Shown here: in pieces, positions 25,775-63,600 of the stretch | Layout: every line of letters begins with the position of its first letter | How positions within the stretch are numbered: the stretch's first letter is position 1 | Source of the DNA: Streptomyces sp. Tu6071 | GTDB lineage: Bacteria; Actinomycetota; Actinomycetes; Streptomycetales; Streptomycetaceae | Assembly (NCBI RefSeq): GCF_000213055.1 | Contig: NZ_CM001165.1 | Span: 1,674,001-1,738,000, forward strand | DNA length: 64,000 nucleotides | Direction: 5' to 3' | Translations under genes and position numbers: made by a program | Notes under the pieces: model-generated | Database searches by the model: none | Seen by the model: the letters and a program-made list of their open reading frames with translations, nothing else | Told to the model about the DNA's origin: nothing

Positions 25775-26587
25775 CTAGGACGCGGAACGCGTCGCGGTGA
25801 CCGCGACAGCGGTGTACTTCATGTCGAAGCTGCCGCCCATGACGTCGATCACGGCGCCGACCTCCGTCAGCACCCTCTCCAGCTTGTCGGGCTGGAACTG
25901 GCCGTGATCCCCCTGGGTGGGCAGCTGGTCGAGCCACTCGTCCTTGCTGTAGACGTACTCCCACTCGAACTGCCACTGCTCGGGCTCACCGAACCCGCCG
26001 ACCTTGCGGATGCCCTCGATGGTCTTGGTGAGCAGCGGCGTGCTGCTGATCTGGGGCGGGGCTGGCATGCTGTAGGCCCGCGTGGCCAGCGCGTCCGGCA
26101 CCACCTCGACGTAGATTTTCCGGAAGGCCTCGCGGACCGCCGCCGGGGGCTCCGCGACGTTCCAGAACGCGGCGAAGCATCCCGACGGGCGCAGCACCGA
26201 CGCCGCCTTGGCCGCACCCACCTCGGGGTCCACCCAGTGCCATGCCTGGCCCGAGATGATGCCGTCGAAGCGCCGGTCCGCCGAGTCCCATTCCTCGAAG
26301 CGCGCGATCTCGATTTCCGTCCCGTGGGTCCGCGCGAACTCCGCCATCCGGGCATCCGGCTCAACTCCGAGAACCGTGCATCCAGCCGCCTGGAATTGAC
26401 GCGCTTCGATACCCGTGCCCGCGCCTACATTCAGTAGTTCCTCACCCGGGCACGACCGCACGATACGGTCCACCAGGCCATCCGGATAACGGGGTCGAGT
26501 TCGATCGTAGCGTTCTGCGTCCAGGCCGTAGTTCTCGGCTGTGCCACGCTGCTGATGGAGTTCTCCGCCGAGCTTCGAATTCGCCAT
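25775..26587 (-). CDS. Class I SAM-dependent methyltransferase (paralogue of 48456-49301)
   Basis: The 270-residue protein has a SAM-binding motif (LLNVGAGTGIEARQFQAAG) followed by VLGVEPDARMAEFAR and ISGQAWHWVDPEVG, as in small-molecule methyltransferases of the UbiE/Methyltransf_11 type. It shares long identical stretches with the gene at 48456-49301 (AERYDRTRPRYP, RQFQAAGCTVLGVEPD), so one arose by duplication. It lies 76 bp downstream of a P450 gene, probably in one transcript. It marks the left edge of the recognisable biosynthetic cluster. The substrate is unknown. Confidence 0.82.
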   Translation of the reverse strand: MANSKLGGELHQQRGTAENYGLDAERYDRTRPRYPDGLVDRIVRSCPGEELLNVGAGTGIEARQFQAAGCTVLGVEPDARMAEFARTHGTEIEIARFEEWDSADRRFDGIISGQAWHWVDPEVGAAKAASVLRPSGCFAAFWNVAEPPAAVREAFRKIYVEVVPDALATRAYSMPAPPQISSTPLLTKTIEGIRKVGGFGEPEQWQFEWEYVYSKDEWLDQLPTQGDHGQFQPDKLERVLTEVGAVIDVMGGSFDMKYTAVAVTATRSAS

Positions 26588-26663
26588 GGATTGACTGTAG
26601 TGGGCGTGCGCCCACTACGTCAACCCAGGGTTGCGCCCTTCTTCACAAGCACTTGCCCCACAC

Positions 26664-27893
26664 TCACCAAAGGACCGGAAGAGAGCGCAGACCCCTGATG
26701 AGCGTGGATTGGGTGTAGGTGATCTCGTCAGCGGGGACGGCGAGCCGCAGTCCGGGAATCGCCGGGAAGAGGGCAGCGAACGCGGCCTCCAGTTCGATCT
26801 GAGCGAGCTGCGCACCCACACAGCGGTGCATCCCGTGTCCGAACGTCAGGTGCGCCGCGGCGTTCTCACGGGTGACGTCGAAGCGGTCCGGGTCCCTGAA
26901 CGTCGCCGGGTCGAAGTTGGCGGCCGTATTGCACGCGACGACCACGCTGTGGGCGGGTATGACGGTGCCACCCAGCTCCACGTCGGCCGTGGTGGCGCGG
27001 ATCAGCCCGGTGTGCGGGTCGACGCCGGGGGTGACGTGGCGCAGCACCTCGGAGACGGCGGCGGGCACGGCCCGTGGGTCGCTGCGCACCACGGCCAGCT
27101 GGTCCGGGTTGTCCAGCAGCGCCAGCAGCCCCTTGCCGAGCATGGTCGCGGTCGTCTCGTAGCCGGCCAGCAGAAGACCGCAGCCGAGGGTGACCAGCTC
27201 CTCGTTGTCGAGGCGGCCCTGCTCGTCGCGGGCGGTGACAAGGCCGTGGAGCAGGCTGCCGTCCGGGTGTGCGTGCTTGTCGTCGACCAATCCGCCCATG
27301 TAGTCGAAGAGGGAGCGCAGCGCCGCCATCGCCTCCTGCGGCTGCGTCCCGGGGGCGCTGACCCGGTCGGCCCAGGCGCGGAAGCGTTCCCGGTCCGCGT
27401 AGGGGACGCCGAGGATTTCGCAGATCACGGCGATCGGTAAGGGGTAGGAGAGCCCTTCCGCAAGGTCCGCGGGCGGCCCGGCCGCCTTCATCGTCCCGAT
27501 CAGTTCGTCGGCGATCTGCTGGATACGGGGACGAAGAGCGCGCATCCGGCGGGCGCTGAACTCTCCTGCGACCAGACGGCGCAGCCGGGTGTGCTCCGGC
27601 GGGTCCATGTCGAGGATGCCGGGCCTGGTGAAGATCACGGCCGGGCTCATCACGGCGTCGAGCCGCCGCGCCTCGACGCGACTGAACCGCGGATCGGCGA
27701 GGACGGTGCGCACCTCGGCCCTTCCGGTCACCAGCCAGGCTTCGCGGCCGTCCCGCATCGAGAATCTGCGTACAGGCTTTTCCCGCCACATATCGTTGAC
27801 CTGCTTCGGCACCGTATAACCCGGGGTGGCGCCGGTATCGGAATTCCCGCTCCGAGTCGGGTCGGGCGAAGTTGTTTCCAGGGATTCAGTCAT
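26664..27893 (-). CDS. Cytochrome P450 monooxygenase (1 of 4)
   Basis: The 409-residue soluble P450 has the I-helix AGYETTAT, the ExxR motif EVLR and the heme-thiolate motif FGHGMHRCVG. ATG 27893 is used, and ATG 27899 would add two residues. A TTA codon at 27440-27438 makes translation depend on the rare bldA tRNA, a usual mark of late, antibiotic-linked control. It probably hydroxylates the terpenoid core. It needs an external ferredoxin, which is not in the window. Confidence 0.93.
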   Translation of the reverse strand: MTESLETTSPDPTRSGNSDTGATPGYTVPKQVNDMWREKPVRRFSMRDGREAWLVTGRAEVRTVLADPRFSRVEARRLDAVMSPAVIFTRPGILDMDPPEHTRLRRLVAGEFSARRMRALRPRIQQIADELIGTMKAAGPPADLAEGLSYPLPIAVICEILGVPYADRERFRAWADRVSAPGTQPQEAMAALRSLFDYMGGLVDDKHAHPDGSLLHGLVTARDEQGRLDNEELVTLGCGLLLAGYETTATMLGKGLLALLDNPDQLAVVRSDPRAVPAAVSEVLRHVTPGVDPHTGLIRATTADVELGGTVIPAHSVVVACNTAANFDPATFRDPDRFDVTRENAAAHLTFGHGMHRCVGAQLAQIELEAAFAALFPAIPGLRLAVPADEITYTQSTLIRGLRSLPVLW

Positions 27894-28768: not shown

Positions 28769-28787
28769 CGGACAGAGAGGAGCAACC

Positions 28788-29723
28788 GTGCTGCCCTCGA
28801 CCAGGAACCGACCGCTCGTAGCCGTACTCGGCGCATCCGGTTTTCTCGGCGCCGCGGTCACCGCCGAACTCATCGACGCCCCGGTACGCCTTCGACTCGT
28901 CTCCCGCGAACGGAAACTTCCGCTGCCGGCCTCCTCGGCCGAGACCCACCTCGCGGACCTCACCGATCCACGTGCGGTACGGGTCGCCGTCGACGGTGCG
29001 GACGCCGTCATCCATCTGGCGGCCCACCTCCCCGACGGGCGCTCGTGGCGTGCGCCGGGCAGCGACTCCGAGCGGCTGAGTACGGGCCTGCTCGACACGC
29101 TCGTCCGCTCCGTGCGCGGCAAGCCGCCCATCGTCGTGTTCGCCAGCACCATCCAGGCGGCGGCCCCCGAGGGAACACCGCTCAACGACTACGTACGGGA
29201 GAAGATCGCGGCCGAGAAGGTGCTCCGGGAGGCGACCCGCAACGGCGCGGTACGCGGGATAGTGCTCCGTCCCGCCACCGTCTACGGGAGTACCCCGCTG
29301 ACTGGGGCGACGGGCCGCGGCGTGGTCGCCGCGATGGCCCGTAAAGCCTTCGCCGACGAGCCCATCACCATGTGGCACGACGGCACCGTCGAGCGGGACC
29401 TGGTGCACGTCACGGACACGGCGCGCGCCTTCGTCGCCGCGATGCGCGCGCCCGAGGCGCTCAGCGGTGCGAGCTGGCCGGTGGGCAGCGGGCGGTCCGC
29501 GCGGCTCGGGGAGGTGTTCGGCACGCTCGCCGGACTCGTCGCCGCGCGGACCGGACGCCCGCCCGTGCCCGTCGTCACCGTGGCGCCGCCGGACTGGGCG
29601 GACACCACCGACTTCGGCAACGTGCACACCGATCCGTCGTCCTTCTCCGCGGCCACGGGCTGGCAGCCACGCGTCCGGCTGCACGACGGCCTCGTCGGCG
29701 TGGCGGACGCGCTCTCTTCTTGA
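28788..29723 (+). CDS. dTDP-4-keto-hexose 4-ketoreductase (NAD-dependent epimerase/dehydratase family)
   Basis: The 311-residue extended SDR starts at GTG 28788 behind AGAGAGGAG. It shows the nucleotide motif VLGASGFLGAAV, the VIHLAAH strand and the catalytic YVREK (Tyr-x-x-x-Lys). It resembles 4-ketoreductases that finish deoxysugar pathways by reducing the C4 ketone. It lies 19 bp after the epimerase gene and ends at a strong terminator. Confidence 0.85.
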   Translation: MLPSTRNRPLVAVLGASGFLGAAVTAELIDAPVRLRLVSRERKLPLPASSAETHLADLTDPRAVRVAVDGADAVIHLAAHLPDGRSWRAPGSDSERLSTGLLDTLVRSVRGKPPIVVFASTIQAAAPEGTPLNDYVREKIAAEKVLREATRNGAVRGIVLRPATVYGSTPLTGATGRGVVAAMARKAFADEPITMWHDGTVERDLVHVTDTARAFVAAMRAPEALSGASWPVGSGRSARLGEVFGTLAGLVAARTGRPPVPVVTVAPPDWADTTDFGNVHTDPSSFSAATGWQPRVRLHDGLVGVADALSS

Positions 29724-29755: not shown

Positions 29756-29761
29756 CCTCGG

Positions 29762-30952
29762 CTACTGGGAGGTGCCGGCGGCGAGGACGGCGAGGCGGTC
29801 GGTCACCTCGGCGGGGCTCGGCTGGGCGAGGACCTCCCCACGCAGCGCCGTGGCGGCGGGTCCGATCCGATCACTGGTCAGGAGGGAGGCGACCGCGCTC
29901 GCTAGCGCGTCCACGGTCGCGTCCTCCCTGTTGACCGCGATACCGGCGCCCGTCGCGGCGAGCCGGGCGCAGCAGGTCTGCACGTCACGCGTGGCCGCGA
30001 CGCCGAGCTGCGGGACCCCGTAGTACGCGGCCGTCATGATCGTGCCCGCTCCGCCGTGGTGCACGACCGCGTCGCAGGACGGCATGATCGCGTTGAGGGG
30101 GACGTTCTCCACCACGGTCGCCCCCGGGGGCAGGTCGGGGACCAGGCCGCGGTCGGTTCCCTTGACCGCGAGAACGATCTCGACGTCGTGCTCGTGGAGC
30201 GTCTTGACGATGTCGGCGACCGGGAACGCCTCCATACCGTCCCTGATCACCAGCATCGACCCCCAAGTGAGAAGCACCCGCCGCTTCTTCGCGGGCGCGA
30301 GAACCGAGGGCGGCAGCACATTGGTCCCGTTGTAGGGGACGAAACGCAGCGGGATCCGCGAGGGGATCTCGCAGATCTGCATGCTCTCCAGCCAGGGATC
30401 GACCGCCGTGACCGCGTTCTCGGTGCGGGGCTCGCAGTCATGGCGCGCGTACAGCTCGCGCAGGGGTTCGGGCCAGTCGTCCGGCGCCATGCCGCATCCC
30501 GGGTAGCCGTACCCGGAGCCGCGCAGCAGGTCAGGACCCCAGAGGTGGTGGACCAGCGGTGCGTCCGCCGCCGTTGCCGCCAGGGGCGCGGCGAGCACGA
30601 GCGGGTCGGCAACCACCAGATCGGGACGCCAGTCGCGGGCCAGGGACACGACCTCGTCCGCAGCTTCCACGGCGAAGCGGACCTGGGCCTCGACCAGCGT
30701 CTGATACAGCGCGGGCGGGGCGCCCGGCGCGGTCTCGACCGGTCCCCTCCTCCGGTGCCTCGCCAGTTCCTCGGTCATGTCGAAGGACTCGGCGATGGTG
30801 ACCATCGGCATCCCGGAACTCACGACGACCGATTCGCCCCAGGGCTGCGCGGCGACACAGACATCGTGACCGGCGGTACGACAGGCCCACATCAGCGGCA
30901 CCATCGGGAAATAGTGCGACGGCGCGGAAGCCGGAATGAACAGTATGCGCAT
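29762..30952 (-). CDS. GT-B family glycosyltransferase (natural-product type)
   Basis: The 396-residue protein starts at ATG 30952 with MRILFIPASAPSHYFPMVPL, the usual start of antibiotic glycosyltransferases (GT1), including the His that acts as base. The C-terminal nucleotide-sugar motif is intact (CDAVVHHGGAGTIMTAAYYGVPQL). It should transfer the dTDP-trideoxysugar to the terpenoid aglycone. It is the only glycosyltransferase in the window, so a single sugar is expected. Confidence 0.92.
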   Translation of the reverse strand: MRILFIPASAPSHYFPMVPLMWACRTAGHDVCVAAQPWGESVVVSSGMPMVTIAESFDMTEELARHRRRGPVETAPGAPPALYQTLVEAQVRFAVEAADEVVSLARDWRPDLVVADPLVLAAPLAATAADAPLVHHLWGPDLLRGSGYGYPGCGMAPDDWPEPLRELYARHDCEPRTENAVTAVDPWLESMQICEIPSRIPLRFVPYNGTNVLPPSVLAPAKKRRVLLTWGSMLVIRDGMEAFPVADIVKTLHEHDVEIVLAVKGTDRGLVPDLPPGATVVENVPLNAIMPSCDAVVHHGGAGTIMTAAYYGVPQLGVAATRDVQTCCARLAATGAGIAVNREDATVDALASAVASLLTSDRIGPAATALRGEVLAQPSPAEVTDRLAVLAAGTSQ

Positions 30953-31085
30953 CCGATACCCGACCATTCTCTTCAGCAGATGTGGCGGTGGGCCCCCAGC
31001 GTGGCCTCTCCGCGGCCGTCGCGACAAGCCTTGCTGATCGGGGTACCGCCGCAGGGGCATATCTGGTACGGGAGGCTGCGCGCTC

Positions 31086-31115: not shown

Positions 31116-31181
31116 GCTGGTGCCCACTCCGGTCCGGACCCTGGTGCCACCGGAACTCCCCGTGCCATTCGTTCACTTCGG

Positions 31182-32326: not shown

Positions 32327-33340
32327 TCAGGACGTGTATGCGTACTCGGACCCGTCGCGGATGGCGTCGACGAGCTCGGCCTGTCGGAGCGAGTCGGCGT
32401 TCTGGGCGGCCAGGTCTCGTGCGACGTCGCCGTCGCCGGACAGTACGGCGGTGGCGAAGGCGGCGACGATGTTCGCGAACTGGTCTCCTGCGGGAAGGGT
32501 GATCTCCTCGGCTCCGTCCCGCCCCTCGACCCACAAGGTGGGGCGATGGTCCGGCTGCGGCGTGAACGCCCGGTCGAGCCGGAGGCGCCCGGACGAGCCC
32601 CGCACCTCGTAGGCGCTGCAATAGGAGTGCTCCATGCCGAAGTGGAGCTGTGCCGTGACACCGGTCGAGTCGGACAGCAGCACACTGCCGCCCACCACGG
32701 CGCCCCGCGCCCGCTCGACGCGGAGCGCCCCGCCCACGAGACGGAGGCGTGCCCCGAGAAAGTGAAGTGCGGCACGGAGGGGATAGACCCCGATGTCCAC
32801 CAGGGAGCCGCCCCCGACGTCGGGCAGGTAGCGGGGGTCCTCCGGCGGCCTCGGCGGAATCGTGAACGTGCTCTCGAAGGAACGGAGTTCACCGATGGCT
32901 CCGCGGGAGACGAGTTCGTCGACGCGGCGATGCTGCGGATGGTGCAGGAACATCATGTTCTCCAGCAGCAGGCACCCGCGTTCGCTCGCGAGGTCAAAAA
33001 GGCGTGCGGTCTCCGGCGACCGGGTAGTGAGCGGCTTTTCGGCGAGGACGTGTTTGCCCGCCAAGAGCGCACGCTCCACCCACTCAGTGTGCAATGCCGC
33101 AGGCAGCGGAATATAGACGGCGTCCACATCGTCCCGCTTCAGCAGTTCCGCGTAGCCTTTTACGGCCGCTCCGCCGAAACTGCCGGTGAACCGCTCGGCC
33201 TTCGTGAGGTCGCGGCTCGCCACCGCGCGTATCTCGATGGAGGGCTCAGCCCGCATCGCCGGCAGTGTCCGCCGCCACGCGATGTCGGCGCAACCGATCA
33301 CACCGAATCTCACCGGTCCCGGTCGCTTTTCCACAGACAT
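32327..33340 (-). CDS. NDP-hexose 3-ketoreductase (Gfo/Idh/MocA family)
   Basis: The 337-residue protein starts at ATG 33340. VRFGVIGCADIAWRRTLPAM matches the N-terminus of 2,6-dideoxysugar 3-ketoreductases, followed by the catalytic AEKPLTT motif with Lys and GGGSLVDIGVYPLRAALHFLG. It reduces the 3-keto group left by the 2,3-dehydratase (encoded at 60332-61723) to give the 2,6-dideoxy-4-ketohexose. It is transcribed alone, divergent from a P450. Confidence 0.88.
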   Translation of the reverse strand: MSVEKRPGPVRFGVIGCADIAWRRTLPAMRAEPSIEIRAVASRDLTKAERFTGSFGGAAVKGYAELLKRDDVDAVYIPLPAALHTEWVERALLAGKHVLAEKPLTTRSPETARLFDLASERGCLLLENMMFLHHPQHRRVDELVSRGAIGELRSFESTFTIPPRPPEDPRYLPDVGGGSLVDIGVYPLRAALHFLGARLRLVGGALRVERARGAVVGGSVLLSDSTGVTAQLHFGMEHSYCSAYEVRGSSGRLRLDRAFTPQPDHRPTLWVEGRDGAEEITLPAGDQFANIVAAFATAVLSGDGDVARDLAAQNADSLRQAELVDAIRDGSEYAYTS

Positions 33341-33458: not shown

Positions 33459-34634
33459 ATGGCCGCCCAGATTCAACTTCCGCTCGACCCACCGCATCCC
33501 GCTCGACCCCAGCACAACCTACGGGCGCTGCAGAAACGGGCTCCGGTGCACCGGGTCAGCACGGCCGTGGGAGACCCCGCCTGGCTCGTGACCGGGTATC
33601 AGGAGATCAAACAGCTGCTCGCCGATCCGCGTCTCGGCCGCAGCCATCACGACCCCGAGAACGCCGCGCGCAGTGGCGCGTCGGAGCTGCTCGACGGTCC
33701 GCGCGGCGACTACGACACCGAGCAGAAATGGATCGCGACGATGCGCTCGCGGCTCCAGCCGTTCTTCTCGGCGGGACATGTGAAGGCGATGCGCCCCCGG
33801 GTCGAGGCGCTGGTCGGCGAACTCCTGGATCGTCTTGAGAAGCAGGGCCCGCCGGCGGATCTGGCCGAGGCCCTCGCGCTGCTCCTGCCACGGGAGGTGA
33901 TCGGCGAGCTCCTGGGTGTCCCGGTGGAGGAGAGGGAGCTGCTGGACGAGTGGACGACGGCGGTGAGCGACGCCCGCGACAGGGAGCGCTCGGCGGCTGG
34001 ACTTGCCGCCCTGCACCGCTACGGCCACGAACTGGCCGCCCGTAAGCGCGCGCACCCGACGCAGGACGTCGTCTCCTGGCTGTGCGAGGACGGCACCCTC
34101 TCCGACGATCAGGTCGCCCAGCTCGCGATGGGTGTGCTGTTCGCCGGCTACGAGACCACCGCGACGGCGCTCTGCGTCGGCACGGCGCTCCTGCTGGACT
34201 CCCCGGAGCAGTGGCGGGCGCTGCGCGAGAACCCCGGACTGGCGCCCACCGCGGCGGAGGAGAGCGTGCGGGTCGTCAGCCGGCTGCTGCCCCCGGTCAT
34301 CCGGTACACGCGTGAGGACCTGGAGATCGCCGGGGCCGAGGTGCGCCGCGGCGAGCTCGTGATGCTCGACATCTACGCGGCGACCCATGACGAGAGCATT
34401 TTTCCCGACCCCGACCGGTTCGACATCACCCGCGAGGACAACCCGCACCTCTGCTTCGGTTTCGGACTGCGGTACTGCATCGGGGCTCCCCTCGCCCGGC
34501 TTGAACTGCAAGCCGCCCTCACCCAGTTGACCACGCGTTTTCCGCGGATGCGCCTGACGGTTCCGGTCGAGGACCTGACGGTCCGCCCGGGTTCGTTCGC
34601 CGCCATTCCCACGTCCCTCCCTGTCATTTGGTAG
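33459..34634 (+). CDS. Cytochrome P450 monooxygenase (2 of 4)
   Basis: The 391-residue P450 has AGYETTAT in the I-helix, ExxR as ESVR and the heme motif FGFGLRYCIG. It starts at ATG 33459 behind GGAAGAGGT. It is followed by the beta-lactamase-like gene after 45 bp, probably in one mRNA. It is a tailoring oxidase for the terpenoid, and its exact position of action cannot be read from sequence. Confidence 0.93.
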   Translation: MAAQIQLPLDPPHPARPQHNLRALQKRAPVHRVSTAVGDPAWLVTGYQEIKQLLADPRLGRSHHDPENAARSGASELLDGPRGDYDTEQKWIATMRSRLQPFFSAGHVKAMRPRVEALVGELLDRLEKQGPPADLAEALALLLPREVIGELLGVPVEERELLDEWTTAVSDARDRERSAAGLAALHRYGHELAARKRAHPTQDVVSWLCEDGTLSDDQVAQLAMGVLFAGYETTATALCVGTALLLDSPEQWRALRENPGLAPTAAEESVRVVSRLLPPVIRYTREDLEIAGAEVRRGELVMLDIYAATHDESIFPDPDRFDITREDNPHLCFGFGLRYCIGAPLARLELQAALTQLTTRFPRMRLTVPVEDLTVRPGSFAAIPTSLPVIW

Positions 34635-34679: not shown

Positions 34680-36134
34680 ATGAGCCTGACGCCGGAAGCG
34701 CTGCGGGCGGCCGTCGACCGGGTCGCTCCCCCGGTGCTGGAAGTCACCAGCACCCCCGGCGCTCTCATCAGCGTCGGCTTCGCGAATGAGACCCCCCTGA
34801 CCATGGCGTACGGCATCGCCGACGTGGAGAGCGGCGCTCCGGTGACCGAGTCGCACACCATGCGCGTCGGCAGCCTCGGCAAACTCCTGGTGGCCACCGC
34901 GATCGCGCGCCTGGCCGACTCCGGCGCGCTCGACTTGGACGCGCCCATCGACGCGCATCTGCCCTTTCCGGTCGTCAATGCGCTCGGTGGCACGATCACG
35001 CTGGCCAAGGCCCTGTCCATGATGAGCGGCGCCGCCACGGACGGATACGACTGGGTCGAGCGGCCCGAGCCGGCGATGCGTTACATCGAGCGCGTGGTCA
35101 AGCGCGGTGTCGTCCACGAGTACGGCACGAACGCGCCCCGCTTCGTGAGTTCGGCGGACGCGAGCGGATGGCAGTCGTCCTCGTTCATGTACCAGGTGGC
35201 CGCGCTGACGGCCGAGGCGGTGACCGGGATGCCGTTGGGCGAGTACGTGAAGGCCGAGATCCTCACCCCGCTCGACATGCGTTCCACCGCCTGGCTCGAC
35301 AGCCCCGACTGGGACGAGGTACGGAGCCGTTGCACGACGGGGCACATGGTGTTCGGCGACCGCGCCGTCCCGCTGCCGTGGCACGAGTGCGGTACCTACC
35401 ACGCGGTCGGAGCGGTCATGTCCTGCGCCGACTACACGCGGCTGATGCTGGCGCTGACCGGCCGCGAGGGTCTGTTCGGCGGCGACGTCGCGAAGGAGAT
35501 CCTGCGGCCGCGCACGACGGCGCGGGACGGGAGCCAGGTGGGGTTCGGTGTCCATCTCTCCGGAGATCCGGCAACGGCCGACCACTGCGTCCGTTCGGTG
35601 GGCCACTACGCGTTCGGTTGGTGGTCCGTCTCGCTCGCCTACCCGAACGCGGCGAAGCCGTTCTGCGTCACCGTGAGCACGAACCTCGCGGACCAGCGTG
35701 ATGTCTTCAACCCGCCCGACCAGTACTCCTTCGGCATCCTCGCCCAGGAGATCGCGGGCTGGATCCGCGACGGAGAGACCGATACGCGCAGCCTGCCCAG
35801 CCGCGCCGAGTGGAACGCGTACGCGATGGGGCTCGTTGCCGCCGACAGGTTCGCCGGGCTGCTGGGGGCGGAACTCGACAAGGGGCAGATCTCCCGAATG
35901 GCCAAGGGGTCGCGGGGGATCGGGGCGTCCTCCACCGCGGCATTCGACGAGGCGCGCTTCGTCGAGGGCTACCTGGACATGCAGGCCGCGGTGCGCGAGC
36001 AGCGCATCGACGCGTACCTGGACACCGACTGCCCGGTCGGTGGCCTGTTCCGCAAGCTCGCGCGCAGGGGATGGGGAAGCAAGGGGTTCGAGGAGCCGTC
36101 CCCGGTGCGCTTCTGGTCCGACAGGCGGGCGTGA
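34680..36134 (+). CDS. Beta-lactamase-fold serine hydrolase / possible acyltransferase
   Basis: The 484-residue cytoplasmic protein has the class C beta-lactamase/esterase nucleophile motif Ser65-Leu-Gly-Lys68 (RVGSLGKLL) and a GHYAFGWW stretch like the third motif. The middle Tyr-x-Asn motif is not obvious (SSSFMYQVAAL in that region). Within biosynthetic clusters this fold serves as an acyltransferase (LovD type) or esterase, so it may attach or remove an acyl group on the terpenoid or sugar. Resistance is less likely, as it has no signal peptide. The C-terminal 120 residues are specific to this protein. Confidence 0.72.
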   Translation: MSLTPEALRAAVDRVAPPVLEVTSTPGALISVGFANETPLTMAYGIADVESGAPVTESHTMRVGSLGKLLVATAIARLADSGALDLDAPIDAHLPFPVVNALGGTITLAKALSMMSGAATDGYDWVERPEPAMRYIERVVKRGVVHEYGTNAPRFVSSADASGWQSSSFMYQVAALTAEAVTGMPLGEYVKAEILTPLDMRSTAWLDSPDWDEVRSRCTTGHMVFGDRAVPLPWHECGTYHAVGAVMSCADYTRLMLALTGREGLFGGDVAKEILRPRTTARDGSQVGFGVHLSGDPATADHCVRSVGHYAFGWWSVSLAYPNAAKPFCVTVSTNLADQRDVFNPPDQYSFGILAQEIAGWIRDGETDTRSLPSRAEWNAYAMGLVAADRFAGLLGAELDKGQISRMAKGSRGIGASSTAAFDEARFVEGYLDMQAAVREQRIDAYLDTDCPVGGLFRKLARRGWGSKGFEEPSPVRFWSDRRA

Positions 36135-54417: not shown

Positions 54418-56630
<2,213 letters not shown>

Positions 56631-56631
<1 letters not shown>

Positions 56632-57596
56632 TGGGTGCGGCGACGGACGGCGCCCGGCAGGGCGCGGACGAGGAGAGCCCGACCCACGTCACCACCACGA
56701 CCCGAACCCTGGACGTGCCGGGAGCACGGCTCTGCTATGACGTACGCGGCCACGGCCCCCTGCTCCTGATGATCGGTTCGCCCATGGGCAGCAGGGGGTT
56801 CACAGCCCTCGCGACCCTGCTCGCCGCGGACTTCACCGTTGTGTCCTACGACCCCCGCGGCATCCTGCGCAGCACCCTCAGCGACCCGGAACAGCCGGCC
56901 CCGCCCGAGCTGGTCGCGGACGACGTGCGCCGGCTGATAGCGGAGCTGGACGCCGGACCGGCGCACGTGTTCGGCAACAGCGGCGGAGCCACCACCGGTC
57001 TGGCCCTGCTCGCCCGGCATCCGGACGCGGTGCGCAGCCTGGTGACGCACGAGCCCCCGGTGACCGAGCTCCTGCCCGACGCGCGGCAGGTGCGGGCCGC
57101 CATCGACGATCTCTGCGAGGACTACGCCGCAGGGCGCCGGGACGTGGCCCTGCGCAAGTACTCGGCCCTGTCCGGTGTCGGCTTCGCCTCGCCGCCTCCG
57201 GCCGGGCAGGCGTCGACCCGTGCGCTGTACACGCCGCCGAAGGACGTCCGGGCGATCCTCGACCGCTTCTTCGGCCGCATTCTCCAGCCCACCACGCGCT
57301 ACCAGCCCGACGTCGACGCGCTGCGGACCGCGTCCGTCCCCGTGGTCGTGGCGGGTGGCACGACGTCCCGGGGGCAGCTCTACCACCGGACCGCGGCGGC
57401 CCTCGCCGAGCTGCTCGACACCCCGCTGGCCGCCTTCCCCGCAGGACACACCGGTTTCCAGGAACACCCGGAGCCCTTCGCCGATCTGCTCCGCGAGGCG
57501 TTCGCACCGCATCGTCACACCAGGATGGAGCGAAATGGAACACAACTTCCAGGCCAGCCGCCAGTGGGAGCGCATACAGAACCGCTGGATCACTGA
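56631..57596 (+). CDS. Alpha/beta hydrolase, candidate CloN7-like acyltransferase
   Basis: The 321-residue cytoplasmic protein has the nucleophile elbow GNSGG (Ser117), the oxyanion strand LLLMIGSPMGS and a late His in GHTGFQEHPEPF. The acid is probably in the strand PVVVAGGTTS region and is not clear. CloN7 of clorobiocin has this fold and helps transfer the methylpyrrole carboxyl to the sugar. This is the only such intact hydrolase in the cluster, so that role is suggested. Its last 62 bases overlap the next gene. Confidence 0.75.
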
Positions 57597-58446
57597 GGAC
57601 GCCGGCGCCGACCTGACGCAGCTGAAGTCCGACTCGAGGAACTTCAAGCTCTCCCTCTGGGACCCGTCGACGAACGGGGTCCGCTACCTCAAGACGCTGG
57701 CCTACAACCTGGGCATGGCGCTGACCCCGCAGGAGCTGGCGCGGATCAGCAGGACCCCCAACCGGGAGGTCGGCGGCCCGACCACGGTTCGGTGCCAGGG
57801 CGAGACGCTCTGCCTGGACTATCTGCAGGCAACGTTCGAGGTCGGTTTCATCGAGAGCGAGATCGACCTGGACGCCGCCAGGGTCCTGGAGATCGGCGCC
57901 GGTTACGGACGCACGTGCCACATGATCATGTCCAACCACGATCTCTCCGGCTACTGCATCGTCGATCTGAAGAACACGCTGGAGCTGAGCAGGGCCTATC
58001 TGCGCGAGGTCCTGGACGAGCCCCGCTTCAAGCTGATCGATTTCATCGAGGTCGAGAGCCTGGCGGGCACCTCCCTGCGCTCGGAGCGTTTCGACCTGTG
58101 CATCAACATCCACTCGATGACCGAGATGGCTCCGGAGACGGTCCGGTCCTATCTCGACCTGATCGACGCGACCTGCTCGGCCTTCTACGTGAAGAACCCG
58201 GTCGGCAAGTACATCGACAAGAGCCTGGACGGCTATCTGCAGGGCGAGGAGGCCGTACAGATGGCGCTGGAGAACGGGCCCCTGCGACAGCTGCTGGACA
58301 TCCACGACAGCGAGGCGGTGCGGGCCGCGGTTCCCGCCTTCGTCGACGGGTACCGGCCGGGCTCCGCCTGGACCTGCGTCGGTGACGGCCGCGCCCTTCC
58401 GTGGAGCTACCTCTGGCAGGCCCTCTACAAGAATCCGCACCGGTGA
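57535..58446 (+). CDS. Sugar O-methyltransferase (SAM-dependent)
   Basis: The 303-residue protein starts at ATG 57535 behind GGATGGAG. It has FKLSLWDPSTNGVRYLKTLAYNLG and the SAM loop VLEIGAGYGRTCHMI, which fit the putative sugar O-methyltransferase family. NIHSMTEM follows. It is coupled to the dTDP-sugar genes downstream. Methylation of the 4-hydroxyl of the trideoxysugar is the expected reaction, given that 4-O-methyl-amicetose is reported in phenalinolactones. It overlaps the hydrolase gene by 62 bases in another frame. Confidence 0.82.
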   Translation: MEHNFQASRQWERIQNRWITEDAGADLTQLKSDSRNFKLSLWDPSTNGVRYLKTLAYNLGMALTPQELARISRTPNREVGGPTTVRCQGETLCLDYLQATFEVGFIESEIDLDAARVLEIGAGYGRTCHMIMSNHDLSGYCIVDLKNTLELSRAYLREVLDEPRFKLIDFIEVESLAGTSLRSERFDLCINIHSMTEMAPETVRSYLDLIDATCSAFYVKNPVGKYIDKSLDGYLQGEEAVQMALENGPLRQLLDIHDSEAVRAAVPAFVDGYRPGSAWTCVGDGRALPWSYLWQALYKNPHR

Positions 58447-59348
58447 AGGGCATCATCCTGGCGGGCGGCAACGGGACCCGGCTCCAGCCCCTCACCCTCG
58501 TGGGTTCCAAACAGCTCGCTCCGGTCTACGACAAACCCATGGTGTACTACCCGTTGTCCATGCTGATGCTCACCGGCATCGACGACGTGCTCATCATCGC
58601 CCGGCCCGCGGAACTCGTGCTGTTCCGCAAGCTGTTCGGCGACGGCAGCAGACTGGGCATGCGCATCGACTACGCGGCCCAGGAGAAGCCGCGGGGTGTC
58701 GCCGACGCCTTCCTCGTCGGGGCCTCGCACATCGCGGGCGAGGAGTGCGCCCTGATCCTCGGTGACAACCTCTTCCACGGCGCCAAGCTGCCCTCCATGC
58801 TGCGCAAAACGGTGCGCAAGCTGCGCGGCTGTGTCCTCTTCGGGCACCAGGTCGCCGAGCCCCAGCACTTCGGCGTCGCCGAGATCGACGCGAAGGGCCG
58901 GCTTGTCTCCATCGAGGAGAAACCGAAGCAGCCGCGCTCCAACCTCGCGATCCCCGGCCTGTACTTCTTCGACGACACGGTGACGGACATCGCCCGCGGG
59001 CTGCGCCCCTCCAGGCGCGGTGAGCTGGAGATCACGGACGTCCTGCGCGCGTACCTGGCCGAGGGCCGCGCCGACCTGGTGTGGCTCGGCCGGGGCGTCA
59101 CCTGGCTGGACGCCGGAACCCACGAATCGCTGCTCGACGCGGGCCGGTTCGTCCGGGACATACAGCATCACCAGGGCATCAGCCTGGGCTGCGTCGAAGA
59201 GATCGCCATGTACATGGGCTTCATCGGCGCGGAGGCCTGCTACCGCCTCGGCGCCGAGATGGACGGCTCGCCCTACGGCCAGTACGTCATGCGCAGCGCC
59301 CTCGCCCACCAGCTCAACCCGACACCCGGCGAGCTGATGGAGGAGTGA
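58443..59348 (+). CDS. rmlA: Glucose-1-phosphate thymidylyltransferase
   Basis: The 301-residue enzyme makes dTDP-glucose from glucose-1-phosphate and dTTP. GGNGTRLQPLT (nucleotide loop), SKQLAPVYDKPMVYYPLS, LGDNLFHG and IEEKPKQP are all present. GTG 58443 overlaps the methyltransferase stop (GTGA), and its own stop overlaps the next ATG, so all three are co-translated. It feeds the deoxysugar branch. Confidence 0.95.
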   Translation: MKGIILAGGNGTRLQPLTLVGSKQLAPVYDKPMVYYPLSMLMLTGIDDVLIIARPAELVLFRKLFGDGSRLGMRIDYAAQEKPRGVADAFLVGASHIAGEECALILGDNLFHGAKLPSMLRKTVRKLRGCVLFGHQVAEPQHFGVAEIDAKGRLVSIEEKPKQPRSNLAIPGLYFFDDTVTDIARGLRPSRRGELEITDVLRAYLAEGRADLVWLGRGVTWLDAGTHESLLDAGRFVRDIQHHQGISLGCVEEIAMYMGFIGAEACYRLGAEMDGSPYGQYVMRSALAHQLNPTPGELMEE

Positions 59349-60319
59349 TGCGTCTGCTGGTCACCGGCGCGGCCGGCTTCATCGGTTCCGCGTACGTCCG
59401 GATGCTGCTCGCGCCCGGCCCCGTCGAGGTCTCCCATGTCACCGTGCTGGACAAACTGACCTACGCGGGCAGGATCGACAACCTGGACGTCACGCACCCG
59501 CGGCTGAGCTTCGTCCAGGGAGACATCTGCGACGCCGCGCTGGTGGACCGCCTCATGTCCCGGGCCGACCAGGTGGTGCACTTCGCGGCCGAGTCCCACG
59601 TCGACCGGTCCATCGCCGGCGCGGACGCGTTCGTGCGTACGAACGTGACCGGCACCCAGACGCTCCTCGACGCGGCACTGCGCCGGGGGGTCGGCCGCTT
59701 CGTGCACGTGTCCACCGACGAGGTCTACGGGTCCGTCGCGGCCGGCCGCTTCACCGAGGAGGACACTCTCGGCCCCACCTCCCCCTACGCGGCGTCCAAG
59801 GCGGGCTCCGATCTGGTCGCTCTCTCCTACCACCGCACCCACGGCCTGGACGTCCGGGTGACCCGGTGCAGCAACAACTACGGGCCGCGGCAGTTCCCCG
59901 AGAAGATCATCCCCCTCTTCGTCTGCCGACTGCTGACGGGCGCCGAAGTACCGCTGTACGGCGACGGCGAGCACGTACGGGAGTGGCTGCACGTCGAGGA
60001 CCACTGCCGCGGGGTGGATCTCGTACGCACCGGCGGGCGTCCGGGCGAGGTCTACAACCTCGGCGGCGGCACCGAGCTGACCAACCGCGAACTGACGGAG
60101 CTGCTGCTCAAGGCCTGTGGCGGCACCTGGGACCAGGTGCGCCACGTGGCGGATCGCAAGGGGCACGACCGGCGGTACTCGATCCTCGACGTCAAGGCCC
60201 GCAGCGAACTGGGCTACCGCCCTCGGCGCGACTTCGAGTCCGGGCTCGCCGAGACGGTTGCCTGGTACCGGGACCACCGCTCCTGGTGGGAACCGCTCGC
60301 CGGTGGCCCCGGGCGGTGA
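59348..60319 (+). CDS. rmlB: dTDP-glucose 4,6-dehydratase
   Basis: The 323-residue extended SDR has the NAD motif TGAAGFIGS, the catalytic STDEVYG (Thr-Asp-Glu) and YAASK, and CSNNYGPRQFPEKIIP for sugar binding. It forms dTDP-4-keto-6-deoxyglucose, the branch-point intermediate. It is the last gene of the rightward operon and converges with the 2,3-dehydratase gene after 12 bp. Confidence 0.96.
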   Translation: MRLLVTGAAGFIGSAYVRMLLAPGPVEVSHVTVLDKLTYAGRIDNLDVTHPRLSFVQGDICDAALVDRLMSRADQVVHFAAESHVDRSIAGADAFVRTNVTGTQTLLDAALRRGVGRFVHVSTDEVYGSVAAGRFTEEDTLGPTSPYAASKAGSDLVALSYHRTHGLDVRVTRCSNNYGPRQFPEKIIPLFVCRLLTGAEVPLYGDGEHVREWLHVEDHCRGVDLVRTGGRPGEVYNLGGGTELTNRELTELLLKACGGTWDQVRHVADRKGHDRRYSILDVKARSELGYRPRRDFESGLAETVAWYRDHRSWWEPLAGGPGR

Positions 60320-60331
60320 GCGGGTGCCGAC

Positions 60332-61723
60332 TCAGGCGTATCCGTCCAGCGAGTTCAGGCACAACAGCAGAGTCCGTGCCTGGACGTTGACGTAGTGGCT
60401 GTACTGGGTGAGCGCGGCGAGCTGGTTCCGCGAGACCCAGCAGAACCCGGGCGGCGCGTCGAGCGGCGCGTCGCCCTCGTCGGCCGCCACGACGAGGTAG
60501 CGGCTCACCGAGTTCAGGAAACGGCCGCCTTCCTCGGAGTGCAGGGCGCTGTAGCGGACCCGCGACGAGGGCGCCGTCGTGACCAGGTCGAGGAAGGGCG
60601 GTCGCTCCGCGACGGGCAGATGGGCATGGCTTCTGGGCTGGCACTGGACCGTGGGGCCCAGCTCCACCTCGGTGGAGCCGCCTTCGGCACGGGCCCGGGC
60701 CAGCACGTGCGGCACGCCCGCGAACGTGCGGGTGACGAAGGCGATCACGCCTTGACCGCGAGGCTCGATCAAGGGCTGGGTCCAGTGGCCGACTTCGCGG
60801 TTGCTCGCCCGTACCGACACGGCCACGGTGCGGAAGTAGCGGTCGTCGTCGTGGTCGATCGAGGAGGCGCCGCGCGTCCAGCCCGCTACACCGGCGAGCG
60901 GGATGCGTTCGCTGCGGATGGGGATCGCGGCCCGGTGCAGGGCCAGCCAGGACAGCAGCTCCGTGTCCGAGTGCAACGCGTGTGGCGCTCCGCGCACCGG
61001 CAGGGCTGCGAGGACCGAACGGGCGTCCATGTTCACGGTGTTGTCGTGCCGCAGGAGCTGATGGATCTGGCGCAGGGTGAGCCAGCGGAAGTCCTCGTGC
61101 TCGGGTACCGGCCCGCTGGTCTCGACGATCATGTTGCGGTTGCGCTTGCGGTGGAACCAGGCGCCGTGCTCGGACTGCAGCACGTCCGCAAGGACGCGGC
61201 CCCGGGAGGGGTCGGTGAAGTACTCCAGGTAGCGGACGGCCGCGCCCTGGTGCACCTTGGTGTAGTTGCTGTACGTGGCCTGCACGGTGGGCGAGAGCTG
61301 GAGCAGTCCGGGGTTGCCCGGCTCCATCTTGGCCTGCATCAAAAAGTGAAGCACTCCGTCGGACTCCCGGGCGAGGATGCCCAGGATCCCGACCTCCGAC
61401 TGCACGATGACGGGCTGGTGCCACTCCGTCCGCTCGGGATGCTCACCGATCGCGGCGTGCAGCCCTTCCACGGTGAAGAACCGGCCGCTGCGGTGGGCGA
61501 GGTTTCCGGTCTCCGGGGCGAACGACCAGTCCTCCAGCGCTTCGAAAGGGATGCGATCCACCGCGAACGAGGTTCGCGCGCGGCGCCGCGCGATCCATTG
61601 GCGGATCTCGTCCGCGCTTTCGCAGGCCGGCGCGGCCGCGGACCGGGCGATCCGGTCGGGCAACGCGGCGGCCCGCCGGGCCTTGAGCCGCGGCTCAGTC
61701 CGGATGTAGTTGGGCACGGTCAC
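60332..61723 (-). CDS. dTDP-4-keto-6-deoxyglucose 2,3-dehydratase
   Basis: The 463-residue protein is built of two similar halves, each with a W...(M/R)...T pattern and a Q-Y/F-S motif ([49 protein letters not shown]). This is the arrangement of NDP-hexose 2,3-dehydratases. It removes the 2-hydroxyl to give the 3-keto intermediate reduced by the enzyme at 32327. GTG 61723 overlaps the stop of the upstream gene by four bases. Confidence 0.92.
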
Positions 61724-63024
61724 CTGTGGGCCCCTACGAACTCGGTGACGGAGGCGATGACGTAGTCGATCATCTCCTCGGTCAGACCGGGGTAGACGCC
61801 GATCCAGAAGGTGTGCTCGGTGACGATGTCGCTGTTGTCCAGCTCGCCGCAGACGCGGAACTCGCGGCCGAGATAGGCGGGGTGGCGGGTCAGGTTGCCC
61901 GCGAAGAGCCGGCGCGTGCCGATCTTGCGGCTCTCCAGGAAGTCCACGAGCTCCGCGCGCTTGAAGGGCGCTTCGGGGTCGACGGTGATGACGAAGCCGA
62001 ACCAGCTCGGGTCGCTGCCGGGCGTGGGTTCCGGCAGCAAGAGCCAGGGCACCTCGGCGAGACCGGAGCGCAGCCGCCCCCAGTTGCGCCGCCGCGCGGC
62101 GCAGAAGTCGTCGAGCTTGTCCAACTGGGTCAGGCCGAGTGCGGCTTGGAGATCGGTCGCCTTCAGGTTGTAGCCCACGTGGGAGAAGATGTACTTGTGG
62201 TCGTAGCCGGTCGGCAGCGTCCCCATCTGGTAGCCGAACCGTTTGCGGCAGGTGTCGCTCTCCCCCGGTTCGCACCAGCAGTCCCGGCCCCAGTCCCGCA
62301 GCGACTCAACGATCCGGGCCAGGGCCAGGTTCGAGGTGAGCACGCAGCCGCCCTCGCCCATCGTCAGGTGATGGGCCGGATAGAAGCTGACGGTGGCGAG
62401 GTCGCCGAAGGTTCCCACGAGCTGTCCCTTGTAGGTGCTGCCGACCGCGTCGCAGGTGTCCTCGATGAGCAGCAGGTCGTGCTCCGCGGCGAGTTGGGCC
62501 ACCTCCGCCACCTCGAAGGGGTTGCCGAGGGCGTGCGCGATCATGATGGCCCGGGTGCGGGGCCCGATGGCTTTCTCGACGTGTTCCGCGGTGGTGTTGT
62601 ACGTGCGCAGGTCGATGTCGACGAAGACCGGGACGAGGCCGTTCTGCAGGATGGGGTTGACGGTCGTGGGGAAGCCCGCCGCCACCGTGATCACCTCGTC
62701 GCCCGGCACGAGCCTGCGCTGTTCGAGCTGGGGTGAGGTGAGGGCGGTGAGGGCCAGGAGGTTCGCCGAGGAACCGGAGTTGGTGAGATGCGCCTTCCGG
62801 CGGCCCATGCGCCGGGCGAAGGCCGATTCGAACTTGCGGGCCGATCGGCCCGCCGCGATCCGCAGGGTCAGGGCCGCTTCGACGACGGCCGCCCTGTCCG
62901 CGGCGTCGAGCACGGCCCCGGACGGCCAGATCTCTGTGACGCCGGCGACGAATTCCCTGTCGTCACTGGTCTCTCGGTGGTACTGACGTACCTCGTCGAG
63001 GATGTGCGCGAGCCGGTTACTCAT
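61720..63024 (-). CDS. PLP-dependent 3-dehydratase (DegT family, ColD/RfbH/SpnQ type)
   Basis: The 434-residue protein has a DegT fold, with [15 protein letters not shown] and [14 protein letters not shown]. His219 stands where aminotransferases have the PLP-binding Lys, the hallmark of 3-deoxygenating dehydratases. Cys-rich [16 protein letters not shown] matches the iron-sulfur region of E1-type enzymes. It removes the 3-hydroxyl to give the 2,3,6-trideoxy sugar. No dedicated reductase partner is encoded nearby, so host ferredoxin or flavodoxin reductase may serve, as reported for SpnQ. Confidence 0.93.
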
Positions 63025-63366
63025 GGGTTCTCCTCGCCGTCGCCGTAGGCGTTGCGGGGGCAGGCGGTAGTTGGCCGGCACGCGATGCACGGGCGGGCGG
63101 CCCGGCACAGTGTGGCCCGTGCGGCTGAAGCCGGCCTAGCCCGGGTCTTGCGCGGAGCTGCCCCCCGCTGAGGACCCGGGCCGGAGGGACGATGCGGCGA
63201 CCGGCCGGCGCAAGACTCGCGCAAGAACAGCTTTAGGGGCGCCCTTCAGGATGGTCGCAAAACGCGCAGCCCCCGCGACATGACGCACAGTCATATTCCG
63301 AAAGCGCAGAGCACTTCCGAAACACGTCGAGCCCGTCCCAGAGCCTGAGCACGAGAGAGGACCAGA
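63025..63366. promoter_or_regulatory. 342-bp divergent control region with 11-bp-spaced repeats
   Basis: No gene is seen. GCGCAAGA occurs at 63208-63215 and 63219-63226 (11-bp period) and inverted at 63146-63153. A 9-bp inverted repeat GCCCGGGTC / GACCCGGGC (63139-63147, 63173-63181) could form a hairpin in the leftward leader. The first pair resembles the one-turn direct repeats bound by SARP-type activators, but no SARP gene is in the window. Confidence 0.5.
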
Positions 63367-63600
63367 ATGGCCATCCTCGAACCGGACATCTCAGATGTCG
63401 CCCACGCGCTCACGCCGAGACAGACCGAGGTGGTGCGGCTCGCGGCACTGGGTCTGACGGCGAAGGAGACCGCCCGGCGGCTCGGCATCTCGAAGACCAC
63501 CGTCGACGAACACCTTACCGAGGCGCGGCGCCGTGTCGGGGCCAGCACCAAATCGCATCTGGTCGGTCTGGCGGTCGCCGCCGGGATCGTCGCCGGATAA
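63367..63600 (+). CDS. Small LuxR-type helix-turn-helix protein
   Basis: The 77-residue protein consists almost only of a LuxR/GerE DNA-binding domain (LTPRQTEVVRLAALGLTAKETARRLGISKTTVDEHL, here quoted in overlapping parts of the four-helix motif at residues 15-50). It has no receiver or ligand domain. A stretch AGASTK-type helix ends it. It is divergent from the deoxysugar genes and may control them, either alone or with a partner. Confidence 0.85.
   Translation: MAILEPDISDVAHALTPRQTEVVRLAALGLTAKETARRLGISKTTVDEHLTEARRRVGASTKSHLVGLAVAAGIVAG

What the first reader, a model, noticed from the sequence alone, without database searches (positions are those of the whole stretch)
25775..63600. Complete phenalinolactone-type diterpenoid glycoside cluster
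Seen: MEP genes, GGPP synthase, UbiA prenyltransferase, cyclase, epoxidase, dioxygenase, four P450s, full 2,3,6-trideoxysugar genes with an O-methyltransferase and glycosyltransferase, and proline-to-methylpyrrole genes. Known: phenalinolactones (Streptomyces sp. Tu6071) combine a diterpenoid core, a butyrolactone, a methylated amicetose and 5-methylpyrrole-2-carboxylate, and their cluster of about 42 kb needs an Fe(II)/2-oxoglutarate dioxygenase and a sugar methyltransferase. Inference: this window encodes that product or a close variant.
Basis: partly seen in the sequence, partly recalled or inferred. Interest (0 to 1): 0.7.

Follow-up and report, generated by a model that had tools for sequence, protein, structure and literature searches.

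The report
Phenalinolactone antibiotic gene cluster

Summary
Observation confirmed, interpretation supported. Decisive: the dioxygenase is identical over all 287 aligned residues to PDB 7QTD, "PlaO1"; the closest ortholog found here differs at 3 of 287. With a TetR gene cut by the window edge and a SARP gene just beyond it the set counts 35 genes, the published number, though it spans 39.9 kb against the published 42 kb. It is almost certainly the published pla cluster, probably strain Tü6071 itself; the reference record could not be aligned. Novelty: already known. Two leads: comparison with other actinomycetes separates a shared core from sugar and aryl-acyl modules, with a possible sugar-plus-chloroanthranilate hybrid in Actinomadura litoris; and the cluster lies between direct repeats of the 3' end of a rumA-type gene, in a strain-variable region.

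The parts
25775..26587 (-). SAM methyltransferase (MT1), left-most cluster gene
   Evidence: Pfam PF08241; 93% in S. hyderabadensis
26664..27812 (-). P450 a; heme motif FGHGMHRCVG
   Evidence: Pfam PF00067; motif; 61% in CB03234
28124..28768 (+). dTDP-sugar 3,5-epimerase
   Evidence: PF00908 E 1e-45
28788..29723 (+). NAD-dependent epimerase/dehydratase family, likely sugar 4-ketoreductase
   Evidence: PF01370; role inferred
29762..30967 (-). EryCIII-type glycosyltransferase
   Evidence: PF06722, PF21036
31200..32249 (+). alpha/beta hydrolase with a signal-like N-terminus
   Evidence: PF12697; sequence read; among the compared loci only in those with sugar genes
32327..33340 (-). Gfo/Idh-type sugar 3-ketoreductase
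   Evidence: PF01408; start; role inferred
33459..34634 (+). P450 b; heme motif FGFGLRYCIG
   Evidence: PF00067, motif
34680..36134 (+). beta-lactamase-fold protein with SxxK motif, candidate acyl (acetyl) transferase
   Evidence: PF00144 E 1e-34; SLGK; role inferred
36183..36977 (-). short-chain dehydrogenase
   Evidence: PF13561 E 2e-58; 91% in S. hyderabadensis, otherwise only hits of 29-30% among 11 loci
36974..38755 (-). 1-deoxyxylulose-5-phosphate synthase (Dxs)
   Evidence: PF13292, PF02779; two further full Dxs domains in the genome
38752..39912 (-). GcpE/IspG
   Evidence: PF04551 E 6e-139; one further copy in the genome
39953..41032 (-). polyprenyl (GGPP) synthase
   Evidence: PF00348; DDVMD motif
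41093..42820 (-). B12-binding radical SAM protein, likely pyrrole C-methyltransferase
   Evidence: PF02310, PF04055; CxxxCxxC; best NCBIfam TIGR04190 below its cut-off; no PDB relative at E 0.001; role inferred
42813..44597 (-). prolyl-carrier-protein ligase (A domain) with a carrier-like tail
   Evidence: best PDB hit L-proline--[L-prolyl-carrier protein] ligase 6o6e, E 8e-146; the tail is a separate 92-aa ORF in G255 but has no Pfam carrier hit
44594..45727 (-). prolyl-carrier dehydrogenase (acyl-CoA dehydrogenase type)
   Evidence: PF00441; prolyl-carrier dehydrogenases 5zw0, 4irn among the four best PDB hits
45717..46784 (-). KASIII-like acyltransferase
   Evidence: best PDB hit ChlB3 7eqi, E 6e-97
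46797..47087 (-). free carrier protein
   Evidence: PF00550; LGVDSL motif
47227..48432 (-). P450 c; heme motif LSLGHGIHFCLG
   Evidence: PF00067; motif
48456..49301 (-). SAM methyltransferase (MT2)
   Evidence: PF13489
49556..50749 (+). P450 d; heme motif FGYGAHHCLG
   Evidence: PF00067, motif
50787..51671 (+). fumarylacetoacetate-hydrolase-family protein of the core
   Evidence: PF01557 E 2e-51
51673..52686 (+). UbiA-type prenyltransferase
   Evidence: PF01040
52702..54417 (+). SHC-like class II terpene cyclase lacking DxDD
   Evidence: PF13243, PF13249; no DxDD
54414..55763 (+). FAD epoxidase
   Evidence: PF01494, PF08491; start
55765..56631 (+). Fe(II)/2-oxoglutarate dioxygenase PlaO1
   Evidence: PF02668; 287/287 identical to PDB 7qtd 'PlaO1'
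56631..57596 (+). alpha/beta hydrolase, candidate aryl-acyl transferase
   Evidence: found by translation, GNSGG motif, PDB alpha/beta hydrolases; role inferred
57535..58446 (+). sugar O-methyltransferase
   Evidence: NCBIfam TIGR04371 E 1e-42
58443..59348 (+). dNDP-glucose synthase
   Evidence: PF00483 E 2e-60
59345..60319 (+). dNDP-glucose 4,6-dehydratase
   Evidence: PF16363 E 5e-74
60332..61723 (-). NDP-hexose 2,3-dehydratase
   Evidence: PF03559 E 1e-149
61720..63024 (-). E1-type 3-dehydrase (C-3 deoxygenation)
   Evidence: best PDB hit 3bcx E 3e-153 with His at the place of the PLP lysine; C191/C249/C251/C259 spacing
63367..63600 (+). short LuxR-type regulator
   Evidence: PF00196; 100% in S. 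hyderabadensis
63789..64000 (+). TetR regulator, cut by the window end (runs to 64379)
   Evidence: PF00440; found in 7 of 11 loci
25091..25159 (-). left direct repeat: remnant of the 3' end of a rumA-type gene
   Evidence: 87% to the intact gene end at window-relative 66994-67063

Best explanation
The window holds the phenalinolactone (pla) cluster, most likely the published one from Streptomyces sp. Tü6071 itself. Its own Dxs and GcpE raise isoprenoid supply; GGPP synthase makes GGPP; the UbiA enzyme prenylates a small acceptor; the FAD enzyme epoxidises the chain end; the DxDD-less cyclase opens the epoxide and closes three rings; P450s, PlaO1, the FAH-family protein and a methyltransferase finish the core and butyrolactone. 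An activated 2,3,6-trideoxyhexose (L-amicetose, as recalled for phenalinolactone) is built by the dNDP-glucose synthase, 4,6-dehydratase, 2,3-dehydratase, 3-ketoreductase, E1-type 3-dehydrase, epimerase and 4-ketoreductase, then transferred and O-methylated. Proline is loaded on a carrier, oxidised to pyrrole, C-methylated by the B12-radical SAM enzyme and esterified onto the diterpenoid. SARP, TetR and LuxR genes regulate it. Shown here: gene content, intact frames, PlaO1 identity, conservation. Inferred from families and published work: the individual steps and the product.
For: PlaO1 identity at 287 of 287 aligned residues, against 3 differences in the S. hyderabadensis ortholog. Gene classes by Pfam and, for the sugar O-methyltransferase, NCBIfam. 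Solved relatives: prolyl-carrier ligase, prolyl-carrier dehydrogenases, ChlB3, E1 3-dehydrase with His for Lys and the four-cysteine spacing. 33 genes plus TetR and SARP make 35, the published number, with a SARP as reported for PlaR1. The order prenylation, epoxidation, cyclisation is the title of Alsup et al. 2024, seen only as a reference entry in PMC13307353.
Against: The reference pla record could not be aligned: it is in no collection here, and the tools may leave out records of the window's own genome (notes). One identical protein does not prove the same strain, because that protein is 99% conserved in S. hyderabadensis too. The span I find, 39.9 kb, is a little under the published 42 kb. 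The roles of SDR 36183, the beta-lactamase-fold protein, both alpha/beta hydrolases and the FAH protein are not established here, and NCBIfam does not name the radical SAM protein as a pyrrole methylase.
Confidence: 0.96

Rival explanations
1. The window is an orthologous phenalinolactone cluster in another strain of the same or a sister species, making the same or a slightly different congener. It shares the mechanism above and differs only on which strain this is, so its odds overlap with those of the best explanation.
For: Such orthologous clusters exist: S. hyderabadensis 33 of 33 genes at 89-100%, G255 32 of 33 at 72-92%. PlaO1 is 99% conserved in S. hyderabadensis.
Against: PlaO1 is letter-identical to the solved protein while the closest ortholog found differs at 3 of 287 positions.
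Confidence: 0.12
2. A tiancilactone-type cluster (chloroanthranilate on the lactone diterpenoid, no sugar).
For: Core genes are shared with CB03234, the tiancilactone producer: dioxygenase 80%, cyclase 68%, P450c 68%, FAH 65%, epoxidase 65%, UbiA 64%.
Against: No tryptophan halogenase or tryptophan dioxygenase turned up among the window ORFs scanned, while both are in ISL-100 and A. litoris; the window's sugar and pyrrole genes find no match of the same kind in the 60 kb taken from CB03234 (the ligase reaches 29% there).
Confidence: 0.01
3. The cluster is present but silent or non-functional.
For: Many Streptomyces clusters are silent (general knowledge); a transposase remnant lies just right of the SARP gene and gene fragments lie left of the cluster.
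Against: All 33 frames are open and the motifs checked are present. If this is Tü6071, production is published (PMC10301674, passage).
Confidence: 0.04

Closest known systems
Phenalinolactone (pla) cluster of Streptomyces sp. Tü6071
   Same: PlaO1 identical over 287 residues; 35 genes (against 23, 41); SARP regulator; sugar, pyrrole and terpenoid gene sets
   Different: Span 39.9 kb against a published 42 kb; no other difference seen, but the record and its gene list were not available
Tiancilactone cluster of Streptomyces sp. CB03234
   Same: Shared core: P450s a, c, d, FAH protein, UbiA, cyclase, epoxidase, dioxygenase, a methyltransferase, carrier protein, alpha/beta hydrolase, LuxR, TetR
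   Different: Has a tryptophan halogenase; no match to the sugar genes, pyrrole dehydrogenase, KASIII-like and radical SAM genes, beta-lactamase-fold protein or secreted-type hydrolase, and no P450b of its own, in the 60 kb read
S. hyderabadensis JCM 17657 orthologous cluster (L026; taken as G215:C121 from the equal contig length)
   Same: 33 of 33 genes at 89-100%, TetR 90%, SARP region 88% by an antisense-frame hit
   Different: The SARP side bears a rumA-end remnant; the intact gene is on another contig
Clorobiocin/coumermycin methylpyrrole pathway (CloN1-N7; recalled)
   Same: Ligase, dehydrogenase, KASIII-like protein, carrier protein, B12-radical SAM methylase, alpha/beta hydrolase
   Different: There the acceptor is a sugar and two carrier proteins are used (recalled); here the acceptor is a diterpenoid and the second carrier is only a suspected tail of the ligase without a Pfam hit

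Membership tests
Phenalinolactone (pla) cluster | PlaO1-type dioxygenase | tested here: met
   287/287 identical to PDB 7qtd
Phenalinolactone (pla) cluster | GGPP, UbiA, epoxidase and SHC-like cyclase set | tested here: met
   Pfam
Phenalinolactone (pla) cluster | 2,3,6-trideoxyhexose genes with O-methyltransferase and glycosyltransferase | tested here: met
Phenalinolactone (pla) cluster | proline-to-5-methylpyrrole-2-carboxylate genes | tested here: met
   the methylase role of the radical SAM protein is inferred
Phenalinolactone (pla) cluster | 35 genes including SARP PlaR1 | tested here: met
   33 in 25775-63600 plus TetR and SARP; published number, SARP; count only, not the gene list
Phenalinolactone (pla) cluster | length of about 42 kb | tested here: inconclusive
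   25775-65629 is 39.9 kb; 42 kb from PMC6902898
Phenalinolactone (pla) cluster | near-identity to the published nucleotide record | not testable with these tools
   record not in the collections; own-genome records may be left out
Phenalinolactone (pla) cluster | product phenalinolactone A-D | not testable with these tools
   needs LC-MS
Tiancilactone cluster | halogenase and tryptophan-derived anthranilate genes | tested here: not met
   no such Pfam hit among the window ORFs scanned; halogenase seen in CB03234, halogenase and tryptophan dioxygenase in ISL-100 and A. litoris
Canonical squalene-hopene / class II diterpene cyclase | DxDD acid motif | tested here: not met
   no DxDD in 52702-54417; SHC profile match only in parts

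The most novel reading that the evidence does not exclude
Lactone-diterpenoid clusters travel as exchangeable cassettes. In Streptomyces they were delivered into an integration hot spot at the 3' end of a rumA-type RNA methyltransferase gene, leaving about 70-base direct repeats on both sides (this window; ISL-100; one side in S. hyderabadensis). Sugar and aryl-acyl modules were swapped around a constant core, yielding a glycosylated chloroanthranilate hybrid in Actinomadura litoris.
Probability: 0.4. Interest if true: 0.4.

Novelty: already known. Interest (0 to 1): 0.15.

Why it matters
The comparison made on the way shows which genes are constant in the phenalinolactone/tiancilactone family and which come with the sugar or the acyl group. 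That suggests testable roles for genes of unclear function (FAH-family protein, beta-lactamase-fold protein, alpha/beta hydrolases, carrier protein) and points to strains that may make hybrids.

Tried and rejected
Reference comparison: the papers looked up by id (Dürr 2006, the Tü6071 genome note, Alsup 2024, the tiancilactone paper, the class II meroterpenoid cyclase paper) are not held. Plasmid look-alikes of two 20-kb stretches of the second replicon did not name the strain. The named-genome scan may leave out the window's own genome, so strain identity rests on PlaO1 and the gene count.

First gene calls were wrong in several places because of the high GC content: the epoxidase, GcpE, acyl-CoA dehydrogenase, 2,3-dehydratase, one alpha/beta hydrolase and the second methyltransferase were missed or replaced by a wrong frame, and were recovered by scanning competing frames. 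SDR 23711 was considered as a cluster gene and dropped: no match in 11 loci. A tiancilactone-type product was considered and rejected on gene content. In one search the script printed two comparisons for the S. hyderabadensis dioxygenase; the first took the neighbouring gene by mistake and was dropped, the second (3 differences of 287) is the one used.

rumA-end repeats, results against an active element: no integrase lies near them in the window's own genome. Of ten genomes searched, a tyrosine integrase lies near such a repeat in two: G007, inside the stretch between repeat and gene, and G005, 1.2 kb from a copy that is itself about 0.9 Mb from the gene; in G085 a partial one lies about 5 kb from a copy. 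No repeats were found beside the clusters of G255, CB03234, Symbioplanes, A. litoris or A. flavus in the stretches read. Extra end-copies occur in at least 12 of the 18 other same-genus genomes, none of which is one of the loci with this cluster, so the link may be a shared hot spot only. The search for print on rumA as an integration site (Streptomyces, rumA, integrase) gave 8 papers; in the one opened (PMC5704250, passages) rumA is a site for streptococcal elements, at an internal position.

Full report
WHAT IS THERE. The window is G000:C1:1674001-1738000 of a 7.5-Mb two-contig genome. All 33 frames are free of internal stops (four start positions corrected, within open frames). Motifs checked: heme cysteines in all four P450s (P450c reads LSLGHGIHFCLG, without the usual Phe), CxxxCxxC in the radical SAM protein, DDVMD in the GGPP synthase, the serine motif of the free carrier protein, and the four-cysteine spacing (C191, C249, C251, C259) of the E1-type dehydrase, which has histidine at the place of the PLP lysine, as in its PDB relative 3bcx.

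IS IT PHENALINOLACTONE. The dioxygenase matches PDB 7qtd, deposited as PlaO1, at E 5e-201, and the printed alignment is identical at all 287 aligned residues. The S. hyderabadensis ortholog differs at 3 of 287. The pyrrole genes match solved prolyl-carrier ligase (6o6e), prolyl-carrier dehydrogenases (5zw0, 4irn; the first hit there is 6cxt, deposited as butyryl-CoA dehydrogenase) and ChlB3. The B12-radical SAM protein has no solved relative at E 0.001 and its best NCBIfam model, TIGR04190, is below cut-off, so its methylase role is inferred. Right of the LuxR gene lie a TetR gene (63789-64379, cut by the window end) and a SARP gene (window-relative 64832-65629; BTAD domain E 8e-43). With them the set has 35 genes, the number stated for the pla cluster in PMC7601586 and PMC10301674 (passages seen); I saw no published gene list, so only the count is matched. 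A SARP, PlaR1, is listed as its activator in PMC10972967 (passage seen). The span, 39.9 kb, is slightly under the 42 kb in PMC6902898 (passage). I count this as the published cluster. That the strain is Tü6071 itself is an inference (about 0.85): the reference record could not be aligned, and own-genome records may be left out of the named collections (notes).

HOW IT WORKS. Two further full Dxs domains and one further GcpE elsewhere in the genome fit the cluster copies serving precursor supply. The order prenylation, epoxidation, cyclisation is the title of Alsup et al. 2024, seen only as a reference entry. The cyclase has no DxDD, in line with the 'atypical bacterial type II' wording of the tiancilactone paper title (reference entry). 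Mutant work on plaO2, plaO3, plaO5, plaU, plaZ and plaV is summarised in PMC10301674 (passage); I did not map those names onto genes here.

COMPARISON. A genus sample gave a cyclase relative at E 1e-40 in 21 of 392 genomes, the window's own included; four of the other twenty have it at 64% identity or more over nearly the whole length, and a fifth, G006, has it in two pieces at 73%. The named scan kept 80 of 194 loci; nine of these have 62% or more. G215, G085 and G006 were taken as S. hyderabadensis, ISL-100 and CB03234 from equal contig lengths and places. Eleven loci were compared gene by gene (stretches of 15.6 to 75 kb, so an absence means absent from the stretch read). S. hyderabadensis has 33 of 33 genes, G255 has 32 of 33 (no SDR 36183), Symbioplanes lichenis 28 of 33 (no SDR, Dxs, GcpE, 4,6-dehydratase, and no true P450a: its best hit is the P450d gene). 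CB03234 and ISL-100 share the core (P450a, c, d, FAH, UbiA, cyclase, epoxidase, dioxygenase, a methyltransferase, carrier protein, the alpha/beta hydrolase at 56631, LuxR) but give no match to the sugar genes, acyl-CoA dehydrogenase, KASIII-like or B12-radical SAM protein, and only 28-29% to the ligase. Dxs and GcpE are near the cluster in ISL-100 but not CB03234. G058, SAJ15 and Wenjunlia match in cyclase and epoxidase but in no other core gene; a dioxygenase relative at E 1e-20 is also missing from the whole genomes of G058 and SAJ15, and Wenjunlia has only a partial 49% hit. The Kutzneria contig has cyclase, epoxidase, UbiA, FAH and P450d, with a 57% dioxygenase on another contig. P450b, the beta-lactamase-fold protein and the secreted-type hydrolase occur in all five compared loci with sugar genes (S. 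hyderabadensis, G255, Symbioplanes, A. litoris, A. flavus) and in neither of the two core loci without (CB03234, ISL-100).

ACYL MODULE. The free carrier protein and the alpha/beta hydrolase occur both with pyrrole genes and in loci with anthranilate-type genes: CB03234 halogenase and AMP ligase, ISL-100 halogenase and tryptophan dioxygenase, A. litoris halogenase, tryptophan dioxygenase, kynureninase-like protein and AMP ligase. I infer that they form a common acyl-transfer port, the acyl group being decided by the ligase set; this is untested. A. flavus speaks somewhat against it: it has a tryptophan dioxygenase and AMP ligase (no halogenase among the ten ORFs scanned there) but no carrier hit and only a partial hydrolase hit (26% of the length). 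A. litoris combines the acyl set with sugar genes, so it may make a hybrid product; but its sugar set is partial in the stretch read: epimerase, 4-ketoreductase-like, Gfo/Idh and glycosyltransferase genes are there, while dNDP-glucose synthase, 4,6-dehydratase, 3-dehydrase and this O-methyltransferase gave no hit and the 2,3-dehydratase only a fragment, with other methyltransferases present instead.

BOUNDARIES. A 70-base stretch at 25091-25159, beside the left-most gene, is 87% identical to the 3' end of an intact gene right of the cluster (window-relative 66996-68339; TRAM and tRNA (uracil-5-)-methyltransferase domains; 'rumA-type' is my label). The two copies have the same orientation and are 41.8 kb apart. 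It is the only extra end-copy listed for the own genome, in a search that scored 40 of 867 candidates. Of 400 random 80-base pieces of the window and its right flank, 2 had a second copy at E 1e-10, both from the methyltransferase pair MT1/MT2. ISL-100 has two such copies around its cluster (about 2.5 and 32.7 kb in a 37-kb contig, 84% and 76%), S. hyderabadensis one beside its SARP gene. In G010, the closest relative searched by this gene (95%; 92-95% DNA identity in both flanks), which has no cyclase hit, the stretch between the place matching window 10987 and the rumA-type gene shows no match of 250 bases or more to the window and holds its own repeat copy 51 kb from the gene. Extra end-copies occur in at least 12 of the 18 other same-genus genomes. 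Tyrosine integrases lie near such copies in G007 and G005 of ten genomes searched, but none near them in the own genome, nor a large serine recombinase. I read this as an old island at a hot spot, not as a proven mobile element.

VERDICT. Observation confirmed, interpretation supported, already known. The side results are leads.

Noticed in passing
window 25091-25159 and window-relative 66994-67063 (L108:3995-4064): Direct repeat of the 3' end of a rumA-type methyltransferase gene on both sides of the cluster; similar copies flank the ISL-100 cluster and lie at one side in S. hyderabadensis; at least 12 of 18 other same-genus genomes have extra copies.
   Followed up: partly
L128-L131 (Actinomadura litoris, G394:C12): Locus with lactone-diterpenoid core, part of the sugar genes, and tryptophan halogenase, tryptophan dioxygenase, kynureninase-like and AMP ligase genes: a possible glycosylated chloroanthranilate hybrid.
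   Followed up: partly
L132-L135 (Actinoplanes flavus, G399:C13): Core plus sugar genes, an IspH (LytB) gene, tryptophan dioxygenase, AMP ligase and a SARP regulator: another variant.
   Followed up: partly
L008 (G058), L031 (SAJ15), L032 (Wenjunlia vitaminophila): Cyclase-epoxidase pairs at 62-64% identity with no other core gene of this cluster in the stretch read: perhaps other meroterpenoid pathways.
   Followed up: no
window 22811-22978: A 56-residue fragment matching only positions 103-158 of the DegT aminotransferase family, beside a partial MmyB-type regulator match: probable gene remnants left of the cluster.
   Followed up: no
L108:1791-3200 (overlapping and right of the SARP gene): A minus-strand frame whose first 155 residues match the start of a DDE transposase, apparently an insertion-sequence remnant just right of the SARP gene.
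   Followed up: no
window 36974-38755: The cluster Dxs lacks positions 193-231 of the N-terminal family model, unlike the two other full Dxs domains of the genome.
   Followed up: no
L029 (CB03234 cyclase): The tiancilactone producer's cyclase matches in two pieces at 73%, residues 1-341 and 346-571, with about 96 bases between them inside one open frame: an insertion.
   Followed up: no
window 10987-25090 against G010 (L137-L140): The closest relative matches window 2885-10987 and the rumA-type gene onward but nothing in between, so the strain-variable region is wider than the cluster itself.
   Followed up: no
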